DNA of 64,000 nt from a virus: the IMG/VR virus record IMGVR_UViG_3300045125_000040, positions 94,791 through 158,790 of that record, one strand, 5' to 3'. The position numbers were made by a program, and so were the translations under genes. Below, piece after piece: positions 3,808 to 64,000 of this stretch. The notes under the pieces are model-generated. The model did no database searches. It was given only the letters and a program-made list of their open reading frames with translations, and had not been told where the DNA came from. Numbering within the stretch: position 1 is the stretch's first letter; each line of letters begins with the position of its first letter.

Positions 3808-4540
3808 ATGAAATCTTTCTTAGAATATATATTAGAAGAAACACATAATGCTCCATCCGGAGTTATATTTGATGGTGATAAAAAAGCATATGTAGGTTCT
3901 CATCATGGGAAACCAATAATTTTATCTAATGATTTAAAATCAAAAATTCTAAATTTAGCAAAAGAATATGGAATTTGGTATGAAGGAAACGGTGATGACA
4001 TTGCTCCGAATATTAAACTATTTGGTAATAAAAAAGCATATGAAGGTTCTTGGGATAAAGAATTCGCTAAAACAGTAAAAGGTTATCCTATACATTTTAT
4101 AGGTGGTATATTTTCTAATGTAAAAGAAAACAATAGAGTTAAAAAACTTACATCACCAAATTTATCTATATTTGATGCTATAATAAAAAAACAAAAGGGT
4201 AATAAGTATTTTGAAGATCGTAGTTATAATGAACATGATCTTACTAAATTTCTAATTGCGGCTAGTGAAAACAATGTAGATTTTTTAAAAATGTCACAGT
4301 TGTCTGCAACAGAAGAAAATATGCGTAAATTTCTTACTACTGGTGAAAAATTAATGTGGCCTGATAACTGGCAAGAGTATCCAAATAAACTAGGTAAATT
4401 GGCAAAGAAAGCCGAAGATGAAAGAAATAGGTTTGTTCTAAAACAGAAACAAGGGGTTTTTGTTTTTAGGTTCTGGACACTTATTAGAATTAAAAGCATT
4501 AGATAAAAGTCTTAAAATGATAGGCGGGGAAAAAGCATAA
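3808..4540 (+). CDS. Probable internal head protein with capsid targeting sequence
   Basis: The N-terminus MKSFLEYILE-E matches the ten-residue capsid targeting sequence of T4 internal proteins (MKTYQEFIAE) at the key positions, including the final (I/L)-x-E cut by gp21. T4 proteins with this tag are packed in the head, trimmed and injected with the DNA. The remaining ~230 residues (blocks KAYVGSHHGKPIILS, LMWPDNWQEYPNK, and after an indel near 4465 GSGHLLELKAL) form a conserved phage family of unknown function that I cannot name. It has its own late promoter and its stop overlaps the next ATG. The packaging role is inferred; the function of the mature part is unknown. Confidence 0.65.
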
Positions 4541-5061
4541 TGTCAGCAATAGATAACACGCCACAGAATAAAAATTTCTTATCACCATTAAACTTTAAAT
4601 TTTTTATAAAACGTTCACCCCATGTTAACTTTTTTATCCAGAAGGTTAATATTCCTGATCTTGTATTGAAAAATGTAAATTACCCTAATCCTCTTGTAAA
4701 TATACCTATTCCTCGTGAACACCTTGATTATGGAACTCTGAATATAACATTCAAAGTGGATGAAGATTTACAAAACTATATGGAATTACACAATTGGATT
4801 AGAGCATTAGGTAAACCAATAGATTATGATGAACATAGAGTATTAGCTCAAAAAGCTATTGTCACAGGAGAAGGTATCTTTTCAGATATCTCTTTGATGG
4901 TATTATCAAGCACTAAAATGGCGAATTACGAAGTTGTATTTGCAGATGCACATCCTGTCAGTTTAACCGGAATGGTATTTAATACTACAGATACAGATGT
5001 GAATTATATTGAGGCATCAGCATCATTTAAATATACCTATTATGAGATTAATAATATTTGA
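4540..5061 (+). CDS. Tail-tube-fold structural protein (gp19-like)
   Basis: Protein of 173 residues with the pattern LSPLNFKFFIKRSPHVNFFIQKVNIPDL at the N-terminus (split here: NFKFFIKRSPHVNFF, then QKVNIPDL), found in tube-type proteins of T4-like phages of marine bacteria. The body is beta-rich with few charged helices, as expected for a tube or tube-cap protein. The start overlaps the stop of the preceding gene, implying coupled late translation. It could be the tube itself or a tail completion protein; homology alone does not decide. Confidence 0.6.
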   Translation: MSAIDNTPQNKNFLSPLNFKFFIKRSPHVNFFIQKVNIPDLVLKNVNYPNPLVNIPIPREHLDYGTLNITFKVDEDLQNYMELHNWIRALGKPIDYDEHRVLAQKAIVTGEGIFSDISLMVLSSTKMANYEVVFADAHPVSLTGMVFNTTDTDVNYIEASASFKYTYYEINNI

Positions 5062-5086
5062 CAAGTCCTATAAAGTATGATATGAT
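5058..5086 (+). promoter_or_regulatory. Early-type promoter for uvsY operon
   Basis: TTGACA, 17 bases, TATGAT, placed 25 bases before the uvsY start. It resembles a host sigma-70 promoter and would start the recombination and replication operon. Confidence 0.7.
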
Positions 5087-5110
5087 ATGTTGTTTACAAT
5101 GGAGTGATAT

Positions 5111-41910: not shown

Positions 41911-42324
41911 CTAAACTTTTAGGATTATTTCTAATAATTTGTGACCATAAGCAATCAAAAATCCTGCAATGGCAATGCCGCCCATGTATGTATACATTAC
42001 CTTTTCCATGTCAGATATTTTTTTGGAAATTTTCTCATACTGCTGATTATTTTCCTCACTCATCTTTTCGATTTCTGATAATATACTTTTGTCTTCTGAT
42101 CGCATAGTATTGTAAACAATATTAAGTTTACCATCAACTTCATCTCTTCTTCTCTCAAGAACATCGACAAGACTATCCATAGTTTTTTCTTGATGTGAAA
42201 GTCTTAGTTCATGTACTGCTATCATTTTATTAAGATCAGCAGAAATTTCTGTTAATTTTGTTATAGCATCTTCAATTTTTTCTTGTCTATATTCTAAATT
42301 TGTATATGCTTTTTCATCTGCCAT
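41911..42324 (-). CDS. Coiled-coil protein with C-terminal membrane anchor
   Basis: 137 residues from MADEKAYTNLEYRQEKIEDA. Long heptad-rich coiled coil, then VMYTYMGGIAIAGFLIAYGH as membrane span. It resembles small anchored proteins of the DUF7201 type in T4-like phages, suspected to be holin- or spanin-related; not shown. The start overlaps the stop of the metalloprotease gene. Confidence 0.6.
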   Translation of the reverse strand: MADEKAYTNLEYRQEKIEDAITKLTEISADLNKMIAVHELRLSHQEKTMDSLVDVLERRRDEVDGKLNIVYNTMRSEDKSILSEIEKMSEENNQQYEKISKKISDMEKVMYTYMGGIAIAGFLIAYGHKLLEIILKV

Positions 42325-45371: not shown

Positions 45372-47469
45372 CTATCCATTTTTTGAAACACCATCAGACA
45401 TATTCTCTTCGGGTGCTTCTGGAGCAAAGGCTTCAAATACAGAATTTAGATGTGCAATTTCTTCATCAGAAAATGTTACTTCTTCTTTAACTCTAGTTGG
45501 TTTGTTATCTTTAGTAACTTCACCTGATCCTTGATAATCACTGCTAGTCTTTCTGGGAGCAGTTGTCTTAGAAGATTTTGCTGGTGTTGATGTAACAGCG
45601 CCAGCACCAAGATAATCAGCTGAATCTGAATTATCTGCCTCTTCCATTTTCTTACCGGCACGAAGTGCTTTGAAATCTTCTGCATCAATCTTATCTGGAT
45701 GTCCAGCTAAAGAAGCAATTTTCTTTTGTTTATCAGATAACTTCTTAGCAGCCTCAAAGACGTTACCGGCTTTTGTATTTTGTAGTTCAAGGAATGAATC
45801 AATAAATGGATTACCAGTTGATTCTTTCATCTTCTTCTTTCCACCAGATTCTGTTCTACCAACAGATGAAACACTACCAAATCCAAATCTTGAAGTTGGG
45901 CTTCCAACAACATCCTTTGCAGAACCAGAGCCAGACATTGATGTTGGAACTCTCATGCTTGGAGGAACAGAACTTGATGGTGTTGAAGCTGGAGGTGGTG
46001 AAGAATCGGACTTCATTGGTGACTGACCAAGTTCTCTTCTTACGAAATCACTGGCTGCAGCACCGGGAGCTTCTTGTCCGGGTCTTGGTCTATTTGAAAC
46101 CAATCCTGAATCTGATGGTGAAGATACCTTTGGAGTCTGTGCTGGTCTTTCAAGAGAAGAGTTCCACCGGGAGTGCCTACACCCTTTTCGCCACCACCAG
46201 GAAGTCTTTGAACGCCACGTGCTGGATCTTCAGCAGAATCACGTGTTGTACTTGGTAATGTTTCTGGCTTACCTTGATTGTTTTTTGAATAATCAATCTT
46301 AGCTGGATCTCTTCCGGGGCTAATACTTGAAAGTGATTTATCTGGTCTTGGTCTTAAAAACTGTGGGTTTGCACTTCTTAGACCTGGATTATCCTGTGGT
46401 CCTTTTGGTCCAGCTGCTTTTGGTACAGATTGACCCGGTGCTTTTGGTTTATTTTGACCATACTTAAGAAGAATGTCTTTGCCTGTGCCTGGATCACGAT
46501 AAGTCTTTCCTGGTCCAAGCTGCTTCATTTTTTGTGCAAATGTTTTTTCAAATGGTGTCATTTCGTCAATATATTCTTCTGACATTTTTTTCTTTCCTTT
46601 TGTCTTTCCGCCACTTTCTGTGTCCCATGGCATTTTAATTTGAAATCCGGGTGCTTTTTCTGTTTCACCACCAATACTCTTTGGCATTCTCATTGGCTGT
46701 GCAGTTTCTGGTGATGCCATTGCTGGTAGAGATGTAGTCTTTGGTGCTGGTGTTGCAGCAGTATTAGCTTTTGGTGTTTCTGGTTTTGGCGTCTCTGCTT
46801 TGGGTGCAGGAACACCAACTTTAGTCTGCTTACCCATAGAAACATATTTTCTGCACCCTTTGCTGGTGCAAGATTTGTTTGATATTTCTTACCAGAATAT
46901 TCGAATTGACCTGTAGCTTTTGCGCCTTTTTCAGCAGCAGCTTTTCTGGCAGCAGCGAATGCTTGTTTGAAAGACTGTTTTGTTTCTGGTGAAACTTTGG
47001 GTGTTTCAGTCTTTGGTGTTTCCGCTGATGTAGCAGCATCTCCTGATGGAGCCTCTGCCTTTGACTCTTCGCCACTTTTAGCGCCTATTACACCAAGACC
47101 TTTTAATGCTTCGTTACCAGCAGCCAATCCTAATCCTACAACAGCGCCTCTTGCTATTTTTGTACCAAGAGAAGTTTTTGGTTTTTCTGGTGCAGGAGCT
47201 TTTTCTCCTTTTGGTGGTTCAGATGGTTTTTCTGTTCCTTTTGGTGGTTCAGGTGGTGGTGTTGTTCCACTTCCTCCACCGCTTGATTTTGGCGGTTCGG
47301 GTGGTGTTAATTTTACTTTTCCTACTGACGTGTCTGGTTTTAATTCTGGTATTCTTTCATAACCACCATGTGGCATTTTTCTAAATTTAGGAAGTTTTAA
47401 ACTCATTTCATCAATATTTCTTTGAACTTCAGCAAGAGCTTCAGAAATACTCTTTTTCTTATCAGACAT
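45372..47469 (-). CDS. Long low-complexity protein with repeated ESGGK and GKKYQTN modules (frameshifted)
   Basis: About 700 residues starting MSDKKKSISEALAEVQRNID behind GGAGG. Pro/Lys/Ala-rich disorder surrounds a short helical segment ARGAVVGLGLAAGNEALKGL, the module QAFAAARKAAAEKGAKATGQ with FEYSGKKYQTN, two copies of a linker ESGGKTKGKKKM / ESGGKKKM, FEKTFAQKMKQLGPGKTYRD, FIDSFLELQNTKAGNVFEAA, and the end TFSDEEIAHLNSVFEAF. Indels near 46,850, 46,160 and 45,385. Probably a virion or internal-head accessory protein; function unknown. Confidence 0.55.
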
Positions 47470-54582: not shown

Positions 54583-54787
54583 TTATTCTCCCCGTGACAT
54601 TGCTACTGCTCGATGGTAATAACGGTCAAAAATACCCAATCGGTCTTCCTCGGAATAACAGTCAGGAATAGGAAATCCTTTTACCTTTATCCAGATATCA
54701 TCTGCCATTGCTAATCTAAATTTCCTATCATTTGAAATCCATCAAACTTTTTTCTATCAAATTTAGGTTTTGGTTTGTCTTCGCTCA
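54583..54787 (-). CDS. Small unknown protein (frameshifted)
   Basis: About 68 residues: MSEDKPKPKFDRKKFDGF, then after an indel near 54,740 DRKFRLAMADDIWIKVKGFP and YSEEDRLGIFDRYYHRAVAM. It begins inside the corrected end of gp41. No known function. Confidence 0.5.
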
Positions 54788-56152
54788 TTTTCTTCCTCCA
54801 TGAACTTGCCCTTATCCAATCACTGGGCGATCATCTACTAATCCTTCCTGCGCTGATTGGTCTACATCATAGAGACGCATTTTACTACGATCAATCCCAA
54901 CGATAAACCTCCGATTAGAACTAGGGTCGGAGTAACGATTTTTAAGCTGTTTAACCATAATTTGGCTGAGCGATTCGAGTTCTTCTGACGAGATGAGGGC
55001 GAACATGAAGCCAGCAGTGGCTGGTAGACCGAAAGATTCTGATGTGTCTTCAAGTCCCACGTCGCTATTCGAATATCCCGAACGAGTTGTCTGTGTTGCT
55101 GACACGATAGGAACGCCGTATCTCGACTGCAAGACCTTCTAAGTTCTTCGGCGATTGCTTTGACGAGCGTGTAGGAATTGACGTTTGCTCCATGTTTAAT
55201 CCTCGATGATAAACAAACAGCTTAGATAGTCAATGTAAATAATGTACTAGGTATAAAGTCTCTTTCTTAATCTTCAAATTCATTCAGAAGATGACGGAAG
55301 TTTGCTGAACCAAAGCCACAGGCAGTGGGATATTCCTTGATGATAAGTTTACCTGTAACCTTAGTCTTCAACTTCTCTAATTTTAGCATCATAAGACTGC
55401 TCTGGGTAGCAATGCTAGTTCATCAACAGCAACATCTAGTAAGCTGGCATCAATCCTTTTCGGCAATACGTTCCTCCGCCATTTCCAATGTGATGTATGG
55501 GTGACGTTATTGCCCCTTGAGAGATTGGCGGCTGCACAGTGACACATGAATAGACTTTTGCCAACTCCGGTTCCGGCGAGGGCAATGTTGAGGGTCTTGT
55601 TGGGAAGACCGCCGTTTGTGATGACATTAAGGTAGTCGAGATCAAATGGCACTCTCTTTTCTTTTCTATGGTAGAACTCATAGCGTTCACTGGCATCGTC
55701 AATAAAGTCATGGCCAATGGGAGTGTCGAAAGAAACTGCCAGCGCATCTGTGAGAATTTGTGGAATAGAACCTTTAGATATCGAACCATTCTTTTCATCC
55801 ATAATTTTAATAGACTCTCATAATGCCAAGATACAATGCTTTATCTTGACAAAACTTTTCAGTCTCGATCTAGCAACCATCCAGCTTAGAATTGGTTGCC
55901 TCAAGAGAAGTGATAATCTCTTTTCCGTTCTTGAATGTTTCTTCATTCAATCCATCTTTATTGGACAGATCAATTGCTAGTGCTTCAATACTAGGAAAAG
56001 AGTTATACTTCTTAACATAATCATCAACTAGATCAAATACAACACGCTCTGAATAATCCCTGAAAATACTCTGTCTTTAGAAAAGGGATAACCTTTCTAG
56101 CATACTCATCATTATGTAATAGATTAGATAGGATTACTCTTTCAATGCTCAT
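54763..56152 (-). CDS. 41: Replicative helicase gp41 (DnaB-like)
   Basis: Hexameric 5'-3' helicase of the primosome with gp61. N-terminus SIERVILSNLLHNDEYARKV; N-terminal helical domain; Walker A LNIALAGTGVGKSLFMCHCA; motif 1a/2 THSHWK-region (ITLEMAEERIAERIDA in the corrected frame); YIDYLNCLF (Walker B); C-terminal PATAGFMFALISSEELESLS, QLKNRYSDPSSNRRFIVGID. About 463 residues (T4 475) with many indels. The corrected C-terminus is GKFMEEENERRQTKT. Its first 17 codons are duplicated upstream. Confidence 0.9.
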
Positions 56153-56154
56153 TC
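56101..56154. repeat. 54-base direct repeat, copy 1 (start of gene 41)
   Basis: Identical to 56,406-56,459. It covers the ATG and first 17 codons of gene 41. Confidence 0.92.
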
Positions 56155-56408
56155 AGGCTCCTTTACTCTTCTGATATCATCAACTCTAATGACAAAACGA
56201 TCAGTAAAATCAGCAAAAGATCGTTCTGCCATTACCCTAGTCTCAATATCCTTCATTGCTTCTTCAACGATACCGACAATATCATCACGAACAGACTCCA
56301 TCACTTTTTCAGTGATCTTCCTCTTGATATCAGATCGAATCCTGTCATTTACTGCTGTTAGAAAATAACCATCCGTGATGTCTGGATCTAGAGTATGCCA
56401 TCATTCAT
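56149..56408 (-). CDS. Unknown protein inserted before gene 41
   Basis: About 86 residues: MNDGIL, LDPDITDGYFLTAVNDRI, IKRKITEKVMESVRDDIVGI, VEEAMKDIETRVMAERSFAD and FVIRVDDIRRVKEPE. One indel near residue 6. Helical and charged. It lies exactly between two copies of the gene 41 start. No known family. Confidence 0.6.
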
Positions 56409-56459
56409 ACTCATCATTATGTAATAGATTAGATAGGATTACTCTTTCAATGCTCATTC
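56406..56459. repeat. 54-base direct repeat, copy 2 (vestigial gene 41 start)
   Basis: Copy of the gene 41 start reading MSIERVILSNLLHNDEYE-stop, a mini-frame of 18 codons that overlaps the ATG of the inserted gene. Confidence 0.92.
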
Positions 56460-56723
56460 CGTCTCCCTTGATTCAAAGTATTTTGCCTTTGTACCGCAGA
56501 AATGTTCTCTACTGTCCTTTCTGAATGTTTCACAGAAATAGAAGTTATCAGCAGTAGCCTTTTCGCCTCGTTACTGGTGAAAATAGTTCCTTATCATCAA
56601 ATATTGCTTTGACGTGCAAACAGTGCGGAAAAAGGAATCTGAACAAAAGCCAGACCTCCAAATCTGCCACCACTTCTTTGGTGATTTGTATGTTGACCAC
56701 TTACAATCTTTACATAGTTTCAT
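56454..56723 (-). CDS. Small Cys-rich protein after uvsX (frameshifted)
   Basis: About 90 residues: MKLCKDCKWSTYKSPKKWWQ, CLHVKAIFDDKELFSPVT, then NFYFCETFRKDSREHFCGTK and YFESRETE. CxxC and further Cys suggest zinc binding. Similar short proteins accompany uvsX or 41 in marine T4-like phages. Indels near 56,650 and 56,575. Overlaps the uvsX end. Confidence 0.55.
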
Positions 56724-57767
56724 TCTCATCCTCATCATTATAAACTAAACTGCCCTCTGTATCAAGTGAATATTTACGCTTGATATATGAAGCGAAGTCT
56801 GTTTCCTTAAAGATAGTCATCCAAAAGTCTCTATTGTCCACGATTTCATTCGCTCTATGGTTCTTTCCAGAGACTTCACCAGTCGTGCGATCCACAACGG
56901 CATACCATCCCACTTTAGGCTTAACGATATAGCCTCCATCAATGGCCACGTCAAGAAGACCACTCCAACGATTAATCCCGCCCTCATAATTAACAGTGAT
57001 TGGGATTTTAGATTTTTCACGGACATAACGAGACTTTTCCACGTTGATAACAAAGTGATAACCAGCGATTTCTGTTCCATCTTTCTCCTCGCTGTCTTCC
57101 TAGAATCCAAATATTGTCAGCACCATAATATGCGCCAGTGCCACCACCAACGACATCTTTAGGAAACATACCAATTTCTTTGTAAGTATGATTAACTGCC
57201 ACAAGCGGAATATCTTCAATGTCAGATGGGGAGTGATCATTCGGAATAGTGATTTCAATTGCTTGGCACGAGACATGTCAGCAACTGACTTCTCATTCAT
57301 AGCATCTTCAACTTCCTTCTTAGAAGCTAGATTACCAATAGAATCAATAATAATTAGAACCTGATCGTCCCTCTGTAAATCCTTTAGCTGTTTCATAATA
57401 TCAAACTTTAGTTCTTCAACATCAGTAATTGGCGTATGAACAACAGAGTCCAATGGAATGTTAAACTTGTTAAAGTATGATTGTGGTGTTCCAAACTCTG
57501 AGTCATAAAATAGAATGACACCATCAGGATACTTCTTTAGGAATGATGATGCTAGAAGCAAAGCAAACCCTGTCTTGAAGTGCTTTGATGGTCCAGCAAG
57601 CATTGTTAGACCCGAGTGATACCACCATCAACAGCACCAGATAGAGCCACATTAATCATTGGCACTGGTGTAGGGATCATATCTTTCTTTGTGTAAACCT
57701 TACTATCTGTTAATGTTGATGTAAGATCAATTGTAGAATTTTTAATTAGACGATCTTTTAATGACAT
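56710..57767 (-). CDS. uvsX: RecA-like recombinase UvsX
   Basis: Strand-exchange protein. N-terminus MSLKDRLIKNSTIDLTSTLT; Walker A region LAGPSKHFKTGFALLL; ILFYDSEFGTPQSYFNKFNI; Walker B VLIIIDSIGNLASKKEVEDA; VAVNHTYKEIGMFPKDVVGG with GTGAYYGADNIWILGR; C-terminal IKRKYSLDTEGSLVYNDED. About 352 residues (T4 391). Indels near 57,600, 57,225 and 57,095. Own early promoter. Confidence 0.94.
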
Positions 57768-57806
57768 TATTAATCCTTCTTTCTAAAAACATTCTCATCA
57801 AGTTCT

Positions 57807-57835
57807 AGTATATTATAGTTCCTATCTTCTGTCAA
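57807..57835 (-). promoter_or_regulatory. Early-type promoter for uvsX-41
   Basis: TTGACA, 17 bases, TATACT on the minus strand, 40 bases before the uvsX ATG. Confidence 0.75.
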
Positions 57836-57845
57836 GGTAGATTTT

Positions 57846-58577
57846 CTACTTTTTTATTCCTATATTCGCCGCCATCAACAATGAGACAGCCAAAGGATCA
57901 AAAACCAAAACAATCAATATGATAACAAATCTAACCGCTTTTTCTAATTGATTGTTATCAGCTTGACCATATATTATATCAGCTATATATTTTACTGGAC
58001 CAACTTCGGCTTCAATCTTACGAACAGCAGTTTCTATCTTAACTTTTTCTATTGTCAGTTCAGAAATCTTTTTAACCTCTTCTTCTTCTTCTTACGAAGT
58101 TGATCTCTATTCTTTTTCTGACCATCCGCCGCTCTTAGTGAAGATTCTCCACGACCTTTTTCTGTTATTTTATTGACTGCATTATCAATTTGTCCTAGTT
58201 GTTTATCAATATCATTTATATTTTGTTTTTCAAAATCAATTTTTTGATTTAATATTTGTAACTGTTCTGTATTACCAGAAGACATATTAACAGTTTGATC
58301 AATGTGTGCTTTTGACAGAAAACCAAATGTTCCCATAGATGAGATAAACATTAATATAATTACAATAACAGTTAAATAATATCTTAATACTTTTGGACAT
58401 ATGTTCCAGTTATTATATAACCATGATGCAGTTACTAATTTACCTACTTCTAAAGCGCCTCCCATAAAAATAACAGGATAAAACGCACCAGCAAATAGTG
58501 CTGTTAATCCATAAACTGAGTAAAACCCCGAAACCCAGAGAGTATCAGGCAGTTAATAATGCTATGTAATTAATCAT
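57846..58577 (-). CDS. Conserved phage membrane protein (frameshifted)
   Basis: About 243 residues. N-terminal spans GLTALFAGAFYPVIFMGGAL and LRYYLTVIVIILMFISSMGT; long coiled coil with QNINDIDKQLGQIDNAVNKI; C-terminal span LEKAVRFVIILIVLVFDPLA then VSLLIAANIG. The MGGALEVGKLVTASWLY and FDPLAVxLLIAAN blocks are shared by many T4-like marine phages, but the function is unknown. Indels near 58,545 and 58,085. Confidence 0.7.
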
Positions 58578-58876
58578 TCTTCTATTATTTCATTAAGTTT
58601 TTTAATGAAATAATTTACTTGTGGAACTCTGTTTTCCCAATGAATATAATCTTTATCAGGTTCTTCCGAAAGATTTTGTAGTAGTGGCATAACATGTTCA
58701 CGTATTTTAGATATTTTATTATTTAAAACCGTTTCTTTATTTTTAACATCATCTATAAGAAGAGTTAATTCATCAACATGTCTTAATGTGTCTTCTATTC
58801 TTTTTTTAAGTATTTCTTCGTTTGCTTTGATATCATTTTCTGATATCAACGAAAATTGGAATTCATTGTCTGCCAT
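58574..58876 (-). CDS. Conserved phage protein, paralogue 1
   Basis: 100 residues: MADNEFQFSLISENDIKANE, a coiled coil, then REHVMPLLQNLSEEPDKDYI and HWENRVPQVNYFIKKL. Shares the MPLL-NL-PDKD-I-W-R-FI-K signature with its neighbour. Known in T4-like marine phages; function unknown. Intact. Confidence 0.65.
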   Translation of the reverse strand: MADNEFQFSLISENDIKANEEILKKRIEDTLRHVDELTLLIDDVKNKETVLNNKISKIREHVMPLLQNLSEEPDKDYIHWENRVPQVNYFIKKLNEIIEE

Positions 58877-58920
58877 AATATTTCCTCCTTTATTATTATT
58901 TTTATCGGAAATTTATTATT

Positions 58921-59190
58921 TTAATTATTAATATATGCATCCATCTTTTTGATGAATGTATCTATTTGTTTTACTCTTTCTGTGCCACTCCATTTAATAA
59001 TATCCTTGTCAGGGTTTTTCTTAAGATTAAGTAATAGTGGCATAATCATTTTTCTTAATCCCTGTAGCTTCACCTGTGTAGCTCCAAGTTGGTCTTGAAG
59101 CTCCATTTCACCAGCTTGTAGTTCATCACTACTAATCATATCAAAATTAAAATCTTCGGACGTAAATCCGAAATCGTCTTCTGTGCTCAT
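58921..59190 (-). CDS. Conserved phage protein, paralogue 2
   Basis: 89 residues: [20 protein letters not shown], a coiled coil, IMPLLLNLKKNPDKDIIKW and ERVKQIDTFIKKMDAY. Paralogue of the next gene. The start overlaps the corrected stop of gene 43 (TAATG). Intact. Confidence 0.65.
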   Translation of the reverse strand: MSTEDDFGFTSEDFNFDMISSDELQAGEMELQDQLGATQVKLQGLRKMIMPLLLNLKKNPDKDIIKWSGTERVKQIDTFIKKMDAYINN

Positions 59191-61697
59191 TAGAAGTCCT
59201 CCAGCGAAAGTTTTTTTTTCTGTTTTCCAGTTGATAATATTTGTTATAGACTGTAGTGGTTCAAGAAATGTCTTTTAAATTGCATTTCACGATCAACATA
59301 CTTATCTATATAATTTAATTCATCAGGCAAAATATCAGGAACAGCAATTACTGTTTCATGAGTTGGATTTGGTAACTTGAGATATGCAAATTTAATCTTA
59401 TCACCCTCAGATATAGGAGGGATAGTTTTGATATTAAGATTTTTTAACATCTTATTGAACGTCAAAGCTCCCTTTACATGAATTGGTGTTCTGTCTTTAT
59501 ACCCATCCTCAATAGAACCATCAAGAACTGATTTGTTGCTCATAAAATATTCTGATAATCCATTCACACCACGGGGGAATGCAACTTCATCAAATGGTAG
59601 TGTAATAAATTTATCATGAAAGTCATTTACTAGCTTTATTAGTTCATTTTCATCCTTATTCATAATTATATCAAAAGACTTCTTGAGATATTCTCTGACA
59701 ATATGAGGTTTGTCAGAACGCACAGCCTCAATTCCATGGATCTTTAGTTTAGGATGTTCGTATTGAACGCCTTCAACATTCCATGCATTAAGAATATACA
59801 TCTTCTTCTTTCGCCAAATGCCCTTATTGGCGATAGTCTCACGCTTCATCTGCATCTTTTGTTGATATGCATTCATATAAACAGCAAGTCCTTGATAGCA
59901 ATTATCAATATATGGCTGTATCTTTTGTTCACAAAACTGATCAATAGCACTAACGATTTTCAATTCATCATACTCTTCTCCAAGAAAAGCATTAGAAACC
60001 AGTTCTTTCATTTCAATATAGATTGAGTCAGTGTCAGAGGCAATAACATACACCTTTATTCTCTGTCTTCATTGCCTTGTTCATAAACTCATTCATTTTC
60101 TTTTCAATCCATCGAATAGACACCATTGACGAAGATGTAATTGCTTCTGCAAGATTGAAGTCGAACCAACGTAGAAAATACTGATTGCCTAAAGCGCCAT
60201 ATGCAGAGTTTAGCTGAATTTTCTTGGCCATTTGCATATTATGATAACGTGCAATGAGTTTTGCATCTTCAAGTGACTTGGTATTCTCATAACGTTGCTT
60301 GGCTTCAAGCATCAACTTCTTATACTTGGTACGATCATTATACATCTTTTCCATTAGCGCGGTAGAAACCCTTGTTCGTCCTTACGAAAAGTACAACCAT
60401 TAGCAGCATATGATAATTCAGTAAAACACTGATATTCTTTTTCATTCAATAAATCATCAATTGATGGCATACCTTCATATCTATGAAAGAAAGTCTCTGG
60501 ACTGATATTATACTGCATGATTAGATGTGGATATAGGCTGTTCAAGTCAAATGACACAACCCATCTATACATATCAGGAATTGGATCGCTGGCATGACCT
60601 CCCATAAGTTCTTTATCCATTACATGATTTTTCGGCGGGGAGAAGCAGCGATATTCTTATCCATAAGATAGTTATGAATAATAATATCCCATGGACGAAC
60701 AGTTGTCATTGTGTCATTGAAATTGAATCTTGGCGTCATAGGCCAAGAGCCATGACTTGTTCAAGAAACTTCAATTTGTCATCTAGTTTGTCAACCAGAA
60801 ACAGCATCGTGGATGTTATACTCAATGAACTTCTGAAAGTTATTCTTATAAAGTTGTAGTAGATTTCCACATTCAGAATAATCAATCTTATTCTCACCAA
60901 GTTCAATATTGGCAATGAAATCAAGTTTATATGATTCCTGATTACCAAATGTAAACTTGCGATACAATTGATAATAGTCTAGAACTGAAATTCCTTCAAT
61001 AGAATAACTTTGGTTTTCTTTACCACGGAATTCAATTGTCTTTCTCTGACAAATCTCCATGGTGATAATTTTTTAATCTGATCTTCATCAAGAACTGACT
61101 TGATACGATTACAGATATAAGGAATGTCGAAGAATTCAATATTCCATCCGGTAACAATATCCAGTGTCTAATGCTTTCCAGCAAGCCAGAAACTTTTTAG
61201 CAACTGAACTTCATTATCACACTGAATGTAAAATGTCTTATCATCATCCGTATTAAATTCATCACAACCAAATACATAGTTACGATTGCGGCAACGAATA
61301 GTAATGGCGGTGATTGGTTTATCTGCTTTCTGAATATCTGGAAACCCTTCATCAGCAGCACACTCAATATCCAGTGAACCAATCTTAATTAATTTGGGAT
61401 CATAATCAATATCACCACCATAATTCTCATAAATATAAACATATGAAAAGTTGGTCAGACCATAAACTTCTCTATTAACGACAGTTTCGTTTTCTGTGAG
61501 AAACTCCCGTGCTTTACCCATGGTTTCAAAGTAAATTTTATCTACTGACTTACCATCAATAGTTTTATAAGCCCCACCTCTTTTTTCTAGAAAGAGATAA
61601 GGCTCATATTTAATTTTTTCTTCAAAACGAAGTCCCATGTCATAACCACGGACATAGATATTATTACCCCTTGAGAAAAGTTTGTATAGAATTTCAT
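59190..61697 (-). CDS. 43: DNA polymerase gp43 (family B)
   Basis: Replicative polymerase with proofreading. Start MKFYTNFSQ; exonuclease motifs [17 protein letters not shown] (Exo I DIE), [15 protein letters not shown] (Exo II) and YNIHDA (Exo III); polymerase motifs [20 protein letters not shown] (motif A), [20 protein letters not shown] (B), [13 protein letters not shown] (C, DTDS). Clamp-binding end [12 protein letters not shown]. About 836 residues (T4 898). Indels near 61,660, 61,170, 61,070, 60,800, 60,640, 60,355, 60,050 and 59,235. Confidence 0.96.
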
Positions 61698-61724
61698 ATA
61701 TCCTCCAATTCGGAACAAGGGGTA

Positions 61725-61753
61725 ATAATACTATATGGTTATGGTTATGTCAA
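61725..61753 (-). promoter_or_regulatory. Early-type promoter for gene 43
   Basis: TTGACA, 17 bases, TATTAT on the minus strand, 28 bases before the gene 43 ATG. Confidence 0.75.
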
Positions 61754-61759
61754 GTGATA

Positions 61760-63560
61760 CTATTCACGAATTGGGATTTTACCCTCTAATAGATCCTTAA
61801 TCTCTTCGCCTGATAATGTTTCATATGTCAATAGACCATTAGCAAGAGTATCTAACTGATTTCTCTTTTTAGTTAGAATATCCTTTGCCGTATGATAAGC
61901 ATTATCAAGGATCTTCTTAATTTCAAGATCAATAAGTCTCTGAGTTTCTTCAGCAACCTTTGGACCATGAAATACGTCAGCATTAGGGTCAGTATATGCA
62001 ACGTTACCTAGTGGAGAGAACCCATACTGAGTAACCATAGCACGAGCAATCTTTGATGCCTGTTGAATATCAGCAGCAGCACCAGATGTAACATTATCTG
62101 ATCCAAACACTAGTTCTTCGGCAGCACGTCCACCCATTGCCATAGCCAGATAAGCAATCATTTCCTTATAAGACTGAGAAATTTGATCACGCTCTGGTAG
62201 AGACTGAACCATACCTAATGCACGTCCACGAGGAATAATAGTTGCCTTGTGAATCGGAACAGATCCTTCCATATTCAGAGAGACAAGAGCATGGCCACCT
62301 TCATGATAAGCAGTTATCTTCTTTCTTCTTCTGACATTAGAAGAGATCTACGTTCTGCACCCATAAGAATCTTATCACGAGCATCATCAAACTCTTTTGC
62401 TGTGACAATTCTCATAGAACGACGAGCAGCAAGCAATGCAGCTTCATTAACAAGGTTTGCTAGATCAGCACCAGAGAAACCCGGAGTGCCTTTTGCAACT
62501 GTTCTAAGATCAACATCCGCACCTAGTGGAACTGCTCTACTATGAACCTTTAGAATTTTCTCACGTCCCATAATGTCTGGATTGCTAACAGTAACCTGTC
62601 GATCAAAACGGCCAGGACGAAGCAAGGCAGGATCAAGCACATCCACACGATTTGTCGCAGCGATAATGATGATACCTTCATTGTCATTAAAGCCATCCAT
62701 TTCTACAAGTAGAGCATTAGAGTCTGTTCACGTTCATCGTTACCGCCACTAATTCCAGCATTACGATTACGACCAACAGCATCAATTTCATCAATGAAGA
62801 TAATGCAAGGAGCATTCTTCTCTGCCTGTTCAAACATATCACGAACACGTGATGCGCCCACGCCAACAAACATTTCAACGAAATCTGAACCTGATAGATG
62901 AAAGAACGGAACTCCTGCTTCACCAGCAACTGCTTTGGCTAACATAGTCTTACCAGTTCCTCGGAGGACCAACAAGCAGAACTCCCTTGGGAATCTTACC
63001 ACCAACTGCCTGAAACTTATGTGGTGCTGATAGAAATTCTACAACTTCCTGTAGATCTTCCTTGGCCTCATCAACACCGGCAACGTCATCAAGCTTTAAC
63101 ATCAATCTCTTCCTCAAGAAAGAAGTTTTGCCCTTTGACTTACCCATGCTCAAAGTGGACCACGACCACCCATACCACCAGTAGTTCTACAGGATAGCCA
63201 AATCCAAAGACCAAAGAAAACTAATACTGGCAATAGATTAATGAAGATACTAGTAAAGATACCTGTTTCTTCTGGTGGTCTAGCATTAATTTAGAACTTT
63301 TCTTATTCTTAATCTGTTCCATGAAACTTCCAATCGATGGAAACATACGTCTGAAAAGTCCTGTTTGTCAGAAAAATGACCAGAAACTTCATTACCAGAA
63401 ATTGTTAGGTCATGAACACGATTTTCGTCAATCTGGGTAATCAATTCACTGAAACTAACTTTCTTGAAACAGTCCTGTGATTTGTATTATCCCAGAGAGA
63501 ATACAGGAAAATTCCTGTGATTGAAAACAACACCCAAGGAGTAACCTTTCTCCAATCCAT
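61760..63560 (-). CDS. ftsH: FtsH-like membrane AAA+ metalloprotease
   Basis: Complete FtsH layout in about 600 residues: span 1 [17 protein letters not shown]; periplasmic domain; span 2 [20 protein letters not shown]; Walker [17 protein letters not shown] (frame-corrected); pore and [19 protein letters not shown]; Walker [39 protein letters not shown]; zinc site [13 protein letters not shown] (HExxH); third ligand region. Indels near 63,440-63,290, 63,110, 62,985, 62,715 and 62,320. Chromosomal FtsH degrades membrane proteins such as damaged photosystem subunits or lambda CII; phage copies are uncommon. Role here unknown. Confidence 0.9.
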
Positions 63561-63628: not shown

Positions 63629-63912
63629 TTATCCAACACGAGCAGCACGGAAGTGCATACCATCTGGTCTGGACCAATCACCACCCCAAATCCAACCTTC
63701 TTCTTTGAATGCTTTAACAATAAGAGAATCATTAGTAAATGAATACTTATTGTAACCTGGTTTCTTACCTAACATATTCCATGGAGCAGCAATATCTACT
63801 GCCAATGCCCATGAATGAACTGATGCTGTAGAACCACCACGCTTTGTTCTGATATTCCAGCAACCAGAAAATACATGTAGTTGTTGTGCCTTAATCTTGT
63901 CATAGTCCTTAT
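63629..63912 (-). CDS. Endolysin, peptidase M15/VanY-like (5'-truncated)
   Basis: C-terminal 95 residues of a peptidoglycan peptidase. Zinc ligands: TASVHSWALAVDIAAPWN (His and Asp) and GWIWGGDWSRPDGMHFRA (final His); WGGDW...DGMHF is the family hallmark. The apparent start (MRRFNK) lies in adapter sequence, so the true N-terminus is cut off by the end of the phage DNA. Lyses the host late, or helps entry if virion-bound. Confidence 0.82.
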
Positions 63913-64000
63913 TGAAGCGGCGCACGAAAAACGCGAAAGCGTTTCACGATAAATGCGAAAAAACGGTTAAACACCCAAATCGATGTAACCGAACGAAGCA
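63913..64000. other. Sequencing-library adapter (Mu transposon end plus nanopore adapter)
   Basis: From TGAAGCGGCGCACGAAAAAC onward about 49 bases equal the phage Mu right end recognised by MuA transposase, as used in nanopore rapid library kits. The last 40 bases (GGTTAAACACCCAA, TGTAACCGAACGAAGCA) resemble the reverse complement of the rapid adapter and Y-adapter with miscalls. Not phage genome. Confidence 0.95.

What the first reader, a model, noticed from the sequence alone, without database searches (positions are those of the whole stretch)
63913..64000. Nanopore transposase adapter left on the end of the sequence
The final 88 bases match the Mu right end and nanopore adapter from memory, so the endolysin gene is truncated by the read end and its apparent start codon is artefactual. 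The adapter also explains the indel pattern in the window.
Basis: partly seen in the sequence, partly recalled or inferred. Interest (0 to 1): 0.6.

Follow-up and report, generated by a model that had tools for sequence, protein, structure and literature searches.

The report
Untrimmed nanopore adapter on contig end
The last 88 bases of this phage sequence are not phage DNA but a leftover piece of the lab adapter used in nanopore sequencing, so the gene it cuts into is merely incomplete and its listed start is false; this is an ordinary, already documented artefact.

Summary
Confirmed: an artefact. Window 63913-64000 is the untrimmed transposase (MuA) adapter of a nanopore rapid kit, at the right end of a 158,790-base viral contig. 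Its first 49 bases match the right end of phage Mu at 100% (E 1e-16). They then depart from Mu into the synthetic arm GGTTAAACACCC and the motor-adapter end CGAACGAAG. The contig's first 91 bases are an inverted copy, so these are contig ends. The same adapter sits on 28 other contig ends (23 contigs), all from one IMG dataset (3300045125). Homology to four related phage contigs stops exactly at 63912, and 34 relatives lack the adapter. The cut gene is an M15-type endolysin: 221 aa in a relative, about residues 129-221 here. Its GTG start (63923-63925) is adapter. The many indels probably share a cause (uncorrected long-read errors) but are not caused by the adapter: FtsH, intact (597 aa) in a relative, lies here in three frames, while substitutions still fall mainly on third codon positions (47/16/168). 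The phenomenon is known (PMC13293122). Low interest, except as a data-quality warning.

The parts
63913..63964 (-). Mu right-end (R-end) segment of the MuA transposon adapter; 50 nt by design, 52 here (two extra A's in the A run)
   Evidence: 100% over 49 nt to phage Mu AF083977 36669-36717, E 1e-16; alignment to the Mu end and 28 other copies
63965..63976 (-). Synthetic adapter arm GGTTAAACACCC (reverse complement GGGTGTTTAACC), joined directly to the Mu end with no barcode
   Evidence: GGGTGTTTAACC is part of the published ONT Y-adapter top strand (PMC9965538); phage Mu has a different sequence here; same junction in other copies
63977..63989 (-). Garbled linker between arm and motor adapter; variable in sequence and length (9-18 nt between the search anchors) among copies, probably basecalling across the click-chemistry linkage
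   Evidence: click-chemistry attachment in SQK-RAD004 described in PMC9284968; cause of the variability is inference
63990..64000 (-). End of the motor-adapter sequence, reverse complement TGCTTCGTTCG of (T)ACTTCGTTCAG, with errors
   Evidence: PMC7490894 and PMC9965538; consensus of copies
63923..63925 (-). False GTG start codon of the ORF 63629-63925, lying inside the adapter
63629..63912 (-). Truncated endolysin gene (Peptidase_M15_4): C-terminal residues, about 129-221 of a 221-aa protein; the rest lies beyond the contig end
   Evidence: PF13539 E 1.1e-15; 94% identity to residues 128-221 of the L028 ORF at 4443-5108
61763..63560 (-). FtsH gene broken over three frames by indels (intact 597-aa ORF in relative L030); probable long-read errors

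Best explanation
The segment is laboratory DNA. In a nanopore rapid (MuA tagmentation) library, the transposase cut the phage DNA inside the endolysin gene and joined its 50-nt Mu right-end oligonucleotide to the 5' end of the fragment; the arm and motor adapter were attached to that. Adapters were not trimmed, so the read that defines the right edge of the assembled contig contributed its adapter in reverse complement. A second read did the same at the left edge. Shown: sequence identity, the exact junction, copies at both contig ends and across the dataset, absence from relatives. Inferred: the specific kit (rapid, non-barcoded), that trimming was skipped, and that the frameshifts are errors of the same uncorrected long-read data.
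For: Mu right end 100% over 49 nt, E 1e-16. Departure from Mu at its base ~51 into GGTTAAACACCC, while three genuine Mu elements in the same viral collection continue TTTAGCTTTC. Published adapter pieces match. Inverted copy at contig bases 1-91 and no other copy in the contig. 28 more copies at the ends of 23 contigs, all of one dataset, always pointing inwards. Homology to L027, L028, L029 and L030 all ends at 63912. No adapter match in 408 kb of 34 relatives. The endolysin N-terminal half is absent from the contig apart from one weak match and present in L028 and L034.
Against: No raw reads, kit record or assembly log was available. The full ONT rapid-kit oligonucleotide was not found as one published string in the library; it was pieced together from the Mu end, two adapter papers and the dataset's own consensus. 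The linker stretch does not match a fixed sequence.
Confidence: 0.99

Rival explanations
1. A genuine Mu or Mu-like transposable phage is integrated in the endolysin gene, and the contig stops just inside its right end.
For: The first 49 bases are identical to the Mu right end.
Against: The sequence leaves Mu at about base 51 and enters adapter sequence, unlike three genuine Mu-family contigs. An inverted copy sits at the other contig end. The same composite sequence is on 28 other contig ends of one dataset.
Confidence: 0.003
2. The inverted copies are natural terminal inverted repeats of the phage genome.
For: They are inverted and at both contig ends.
Against: The same sequence occurs on many other contigs of the same dataset, contains the published adapter pieces, and is absent from close relatives. 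The right junction cuts a conserved gene.
Confidence: 0.002
3. The adapter is an artefact, but the frameshifts in the window are real gene decay rather than sequencing error.
For: Indels are mostly insertions (51 against 21 deletions), not the homopolymer-deletion bias I would expect of nanopore data from general knowledge.
Against: FtsH keeps a strong third-position substitution bias (47/16/168) although it is broken over three frames. Long-ORF density is low across the window (26% of bases in ORFs of 200 aa or more) and in other adapter-bearing contigs of the dataset (median 18%) against a median of 65% in relatives.
Confidence: 0.03

Closest known systems
Oxford Nanopore rapid sequencing kit (SQK-RAD series) MuA transposase adapter
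   Same: Mu right-end 50-mer, GGGTGTTTAACC arm and TACTTCGTTCAG motor-adapter end, pointing into the insert; no barcode between arm and Mu end
   Different: A few base errors (two extra A's; CGTTCGG for CGTTCAG) and a garbled linker; kit not documented for this sample
Adapter and barcode remnants in public assemblies (Barbell study, PMC13293122)
   Same: Untrimmed rapid-kit sequence left in phage, plasmid and bacterial records, also at contig ends
   Different: That survey counted barcoded hits and set flank-only hits aside because of possible genuine Mu; here the arm beyond Mu base 50 separates the two without a barcode
Phage Mu right end (AF083977)
   Same: 49 of 49 bases identical
   Different: Everything beyond the Mu end is adapter, not Mu

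Membership tests
Nanopore rapid-kit (MuA) adapter | 50-nt Mu right end ending ...GCGCCGCTTCA directly at the insert | tested here: met
Nanopore rapid-kit (MuA) adapter | Synthetic arm GGGTGTTTAACC and motor-adapter end ACTTCGTTCAG outside the Mu end | tested here: met
   arm exact, motor end with errors at the window end; published pieces; consensus
Nanopore rapid-kit (MuA) adapter | Located only at molecule or contig ends, pointing inwards | tested here: met
   contig bases 1-91 and 158703-158790 only; 28 other copies at contig ends
Nanopore rapid-kit (MuA) adapter | Absent from related genomes at the same place | tested here: met
   homology to four relatives ends at 63912; no match in 34 relatives
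Nanopore rapid-kit (MuA) adapter | Sample was in fact sequenced with that kit | not testable with these tools
   no sample metadata or raw reads; dataset id not found in held papers
Phage Mu / Muvirus element | Mu sequence continues inward from the right end | tested here: not met
   diverges after Mu base ~50
Peptidase M15 endolysin (the truncated gene) | Peptidase_M15_4 domain | tested here: met
   PF13539 58.4 bits, cut-off 25; catalytic activity not testable here

The most novel reading that the evidence does not exclude
The phage carries a naturally acquired Mu-derived inverted terminal sequence. The evidence leaves practically no room for this.
Probability: 0.002. Interest if true: 0.5.

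Novelty: not a real feature. Interest (0 to 1): 0.06.

Why it matters
It matters only as data hygiene. Viral contigs of IMG dataset 3300045125 carry untrimmed adapters on at least 23 contigs besides this one, and those checked tend to have broken genes as well. Adapter ends create false start codons and could hide terminal repeats from circularity checks. Gene-content claims from these contigs, such as 'pseudogenes', 'split genes' or 'short ORFs', should be discounted.

Tried and rejected
Genuine Mu insertion: rejected, because the sequence leaves Mu at base ~51. Natural terminal repeats: rejected, because the same sequence is on other contigs of one dataset and absent from relatives. Barcoded rapid kit: rejected, because the arm joins the Mu end directly in the copies examined, while a Streptomyces plasmid record shows a ~24-nt insert there. 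A single MuA cut opening a circular genome (would give a 5-base duplication and put the endolysin's missing half at the contig start): rejected. The insert starts ATAAT and ends CTTAT, and the contig start does not encode the missing half. Searches of the paper library for the dataset id gave nothing, and the entire adapter string was too long for the tool.

Full report
What is there. The window is the right end (94791-158790) of a 158,790-base viral contig. Its last 88 bases, 63913-64000, begin TGAAGCGGCG and end CGAACGAAGCA. A blastn search of annotated phages matched the first 49 bases to the right end of phage Mu at 100%, E 1e-16; no record covered the rest. Read in reverse complement the segment is TGCTTCGTTCG / garbled linker / GGGTGTTTAACC / Mu right end. 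A paper that trimmed residual nanopore adapters from a phage assembly gives the Y-adapter top strand as GGCGTCTGCTTGGGTGTTTAACCTTTTTTTTTTAATGTACTTCGTTCAGTTACGTATTGCT, which holds both non-Mu pieces (PMC9965538). A Mu-transposase library paper lists oligonucleotides built on the same Mu right end (PMC5517011).

It is not phage Mu. Genuine Mu continues inward as AAAACTTTAGCTTTC; the window goes AAAAAACGGTTAAACACCC. The pattern scan of the viral collection served as an internal control: three hits (L003, L009, L021) carry true Mu flanks and are internal, while the other twenty carry the synthetic arm and lie at contig ends.

Dataset-wide. Scans with the Mu 28-mer and with the synthetic junction found 28 copies at the ends of 23 contigs, all from IMG dataset 3300045125, five of the contigs at both ends. 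One hit from another dataset (L067) matches the 19-mer only, with unrelated flanks, and is probably chance. One contig (L070) has two adapters in tandem at its end. Among the 30 copies including this contig's two, the Mu end and arm are nearly constant while the stretch between arm and motor adapter varies in sequence and length (9-18 nt). Some of the constancy is by selection, since most copies were found through exact words in the Mu end. Rapid-kit adapters are attached by click chemistry (PMC9284968), so basecalling noise across a non-natural linkage is a likely reason for the variable stretch (inference). No barcode lies between arm and Mu end, unlike in a Streptomyces plasmid record (L076), which points to a non-barcoded kit (inference).

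Both contig ends. An inverted copy occupies contig bases 1-91 and no other copy was found in the contig. MuA joins its oligonucleotide to 5' ends (general knowledge), so one read should carry it at its start; inverted copies at both ends fit a contig whose two edges come from reads of opposite strands. 'Truncated by the read end' should therefore be 'truncated by the contig end'.

Junction and truncated gene. Against four related contigs (L027-L030) blastn alignments all end at window base 63912. The ORF 63629-63925 (minus) encodes a Peptidase_M15_4 protein. Its relative in L028 is 221 aa (4443-5108); the window holds about residues 129-221, 94% identical. The GTG start at 63923-63925 is adapter. 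The missing N-terminal half is not at the contig start; a search of the contig gave one weak hit elsewhere (E 0.012). The contig start shares homology with the region just upstream of the endolysin in L034 and L031, so the two ends probably lie within a few kilobases of each other on the phage map and the contig may be nearly complete (inference). An Hsp20-like gene found next to the endolysin in L028 and L034 (named from memory of the family, not tested) was not found in the contig (an empty result is weak evidence).

Indels. Against L030 the window has 72 non-triplet gaps in 6,751 aligned ORF bases (10.7 per kb), against 2.7-4.3 per kb for four other relatives. FtsH, an intact 597-aa ORF in L030, is spread over three frames here, while substitutions fall 47/16/168 on codon positions 1/2/3: the protein has been under selection, so the breaks are best read as sequencing errors. 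Only 26% of the window lies in ORFs of 200 aa or more, against medians of 18% in 16 adapter-bearing contigs and 65% in 34 relatives. The bias to insertions (51 against 21) is unexplained. The adapter does not cause the indels; both most likely follow from untrimmed, uncorrected long reads.

Known or new. Leftover nanopore adapters in public assemblies, including phages and plasmids, were surveyed in PMC13293122. The finding is an artefact of a documented kind.

Noticed in passing
contig G000 1-91 (locus L002): The left end of the same contig also carries the adapter, with more errors; not visible in the window.
   Followed up: yes
L078 (PQ065999.1, Proteus phage vB_PmiA_PM1, record 41911-42159): A nanopore rapid adapter (Mu end, barcode-like stretch, GGTTAAACACCC) lies inside the record, and an annotated hypothetical protein (XES61207.1) overlaps it.
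   Followed up: partly
L076, L077, L079, L080: Adapter or Mu-end remnants in records of a Streptomyces plasmid end, Streptococcus phage 36L (first 29 bases), Borrelia miyamotoi cp26 and E. coli plasmid pUTAK-3.
   Followed up: partly
L072 (JAUZRZ010000023.1, Sulfurimonas MAG): Adapter junction at the start of a contig in the GTDB genome collection.
   Followed up: no
window 46831-46974: Weak match (51% over 41 aa, E 0.012) to the N-terminal part of the endolysin of L028, far from the truncated gene; perhaps a shared N-terminal segment in another protein.
   Followed up: no
window 54700-63500: Single-base indels against relative L030 are mostly insertions (51 against 21 deletions), unlike the deletion bias expected of nanopore data.
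   Followed up: partly
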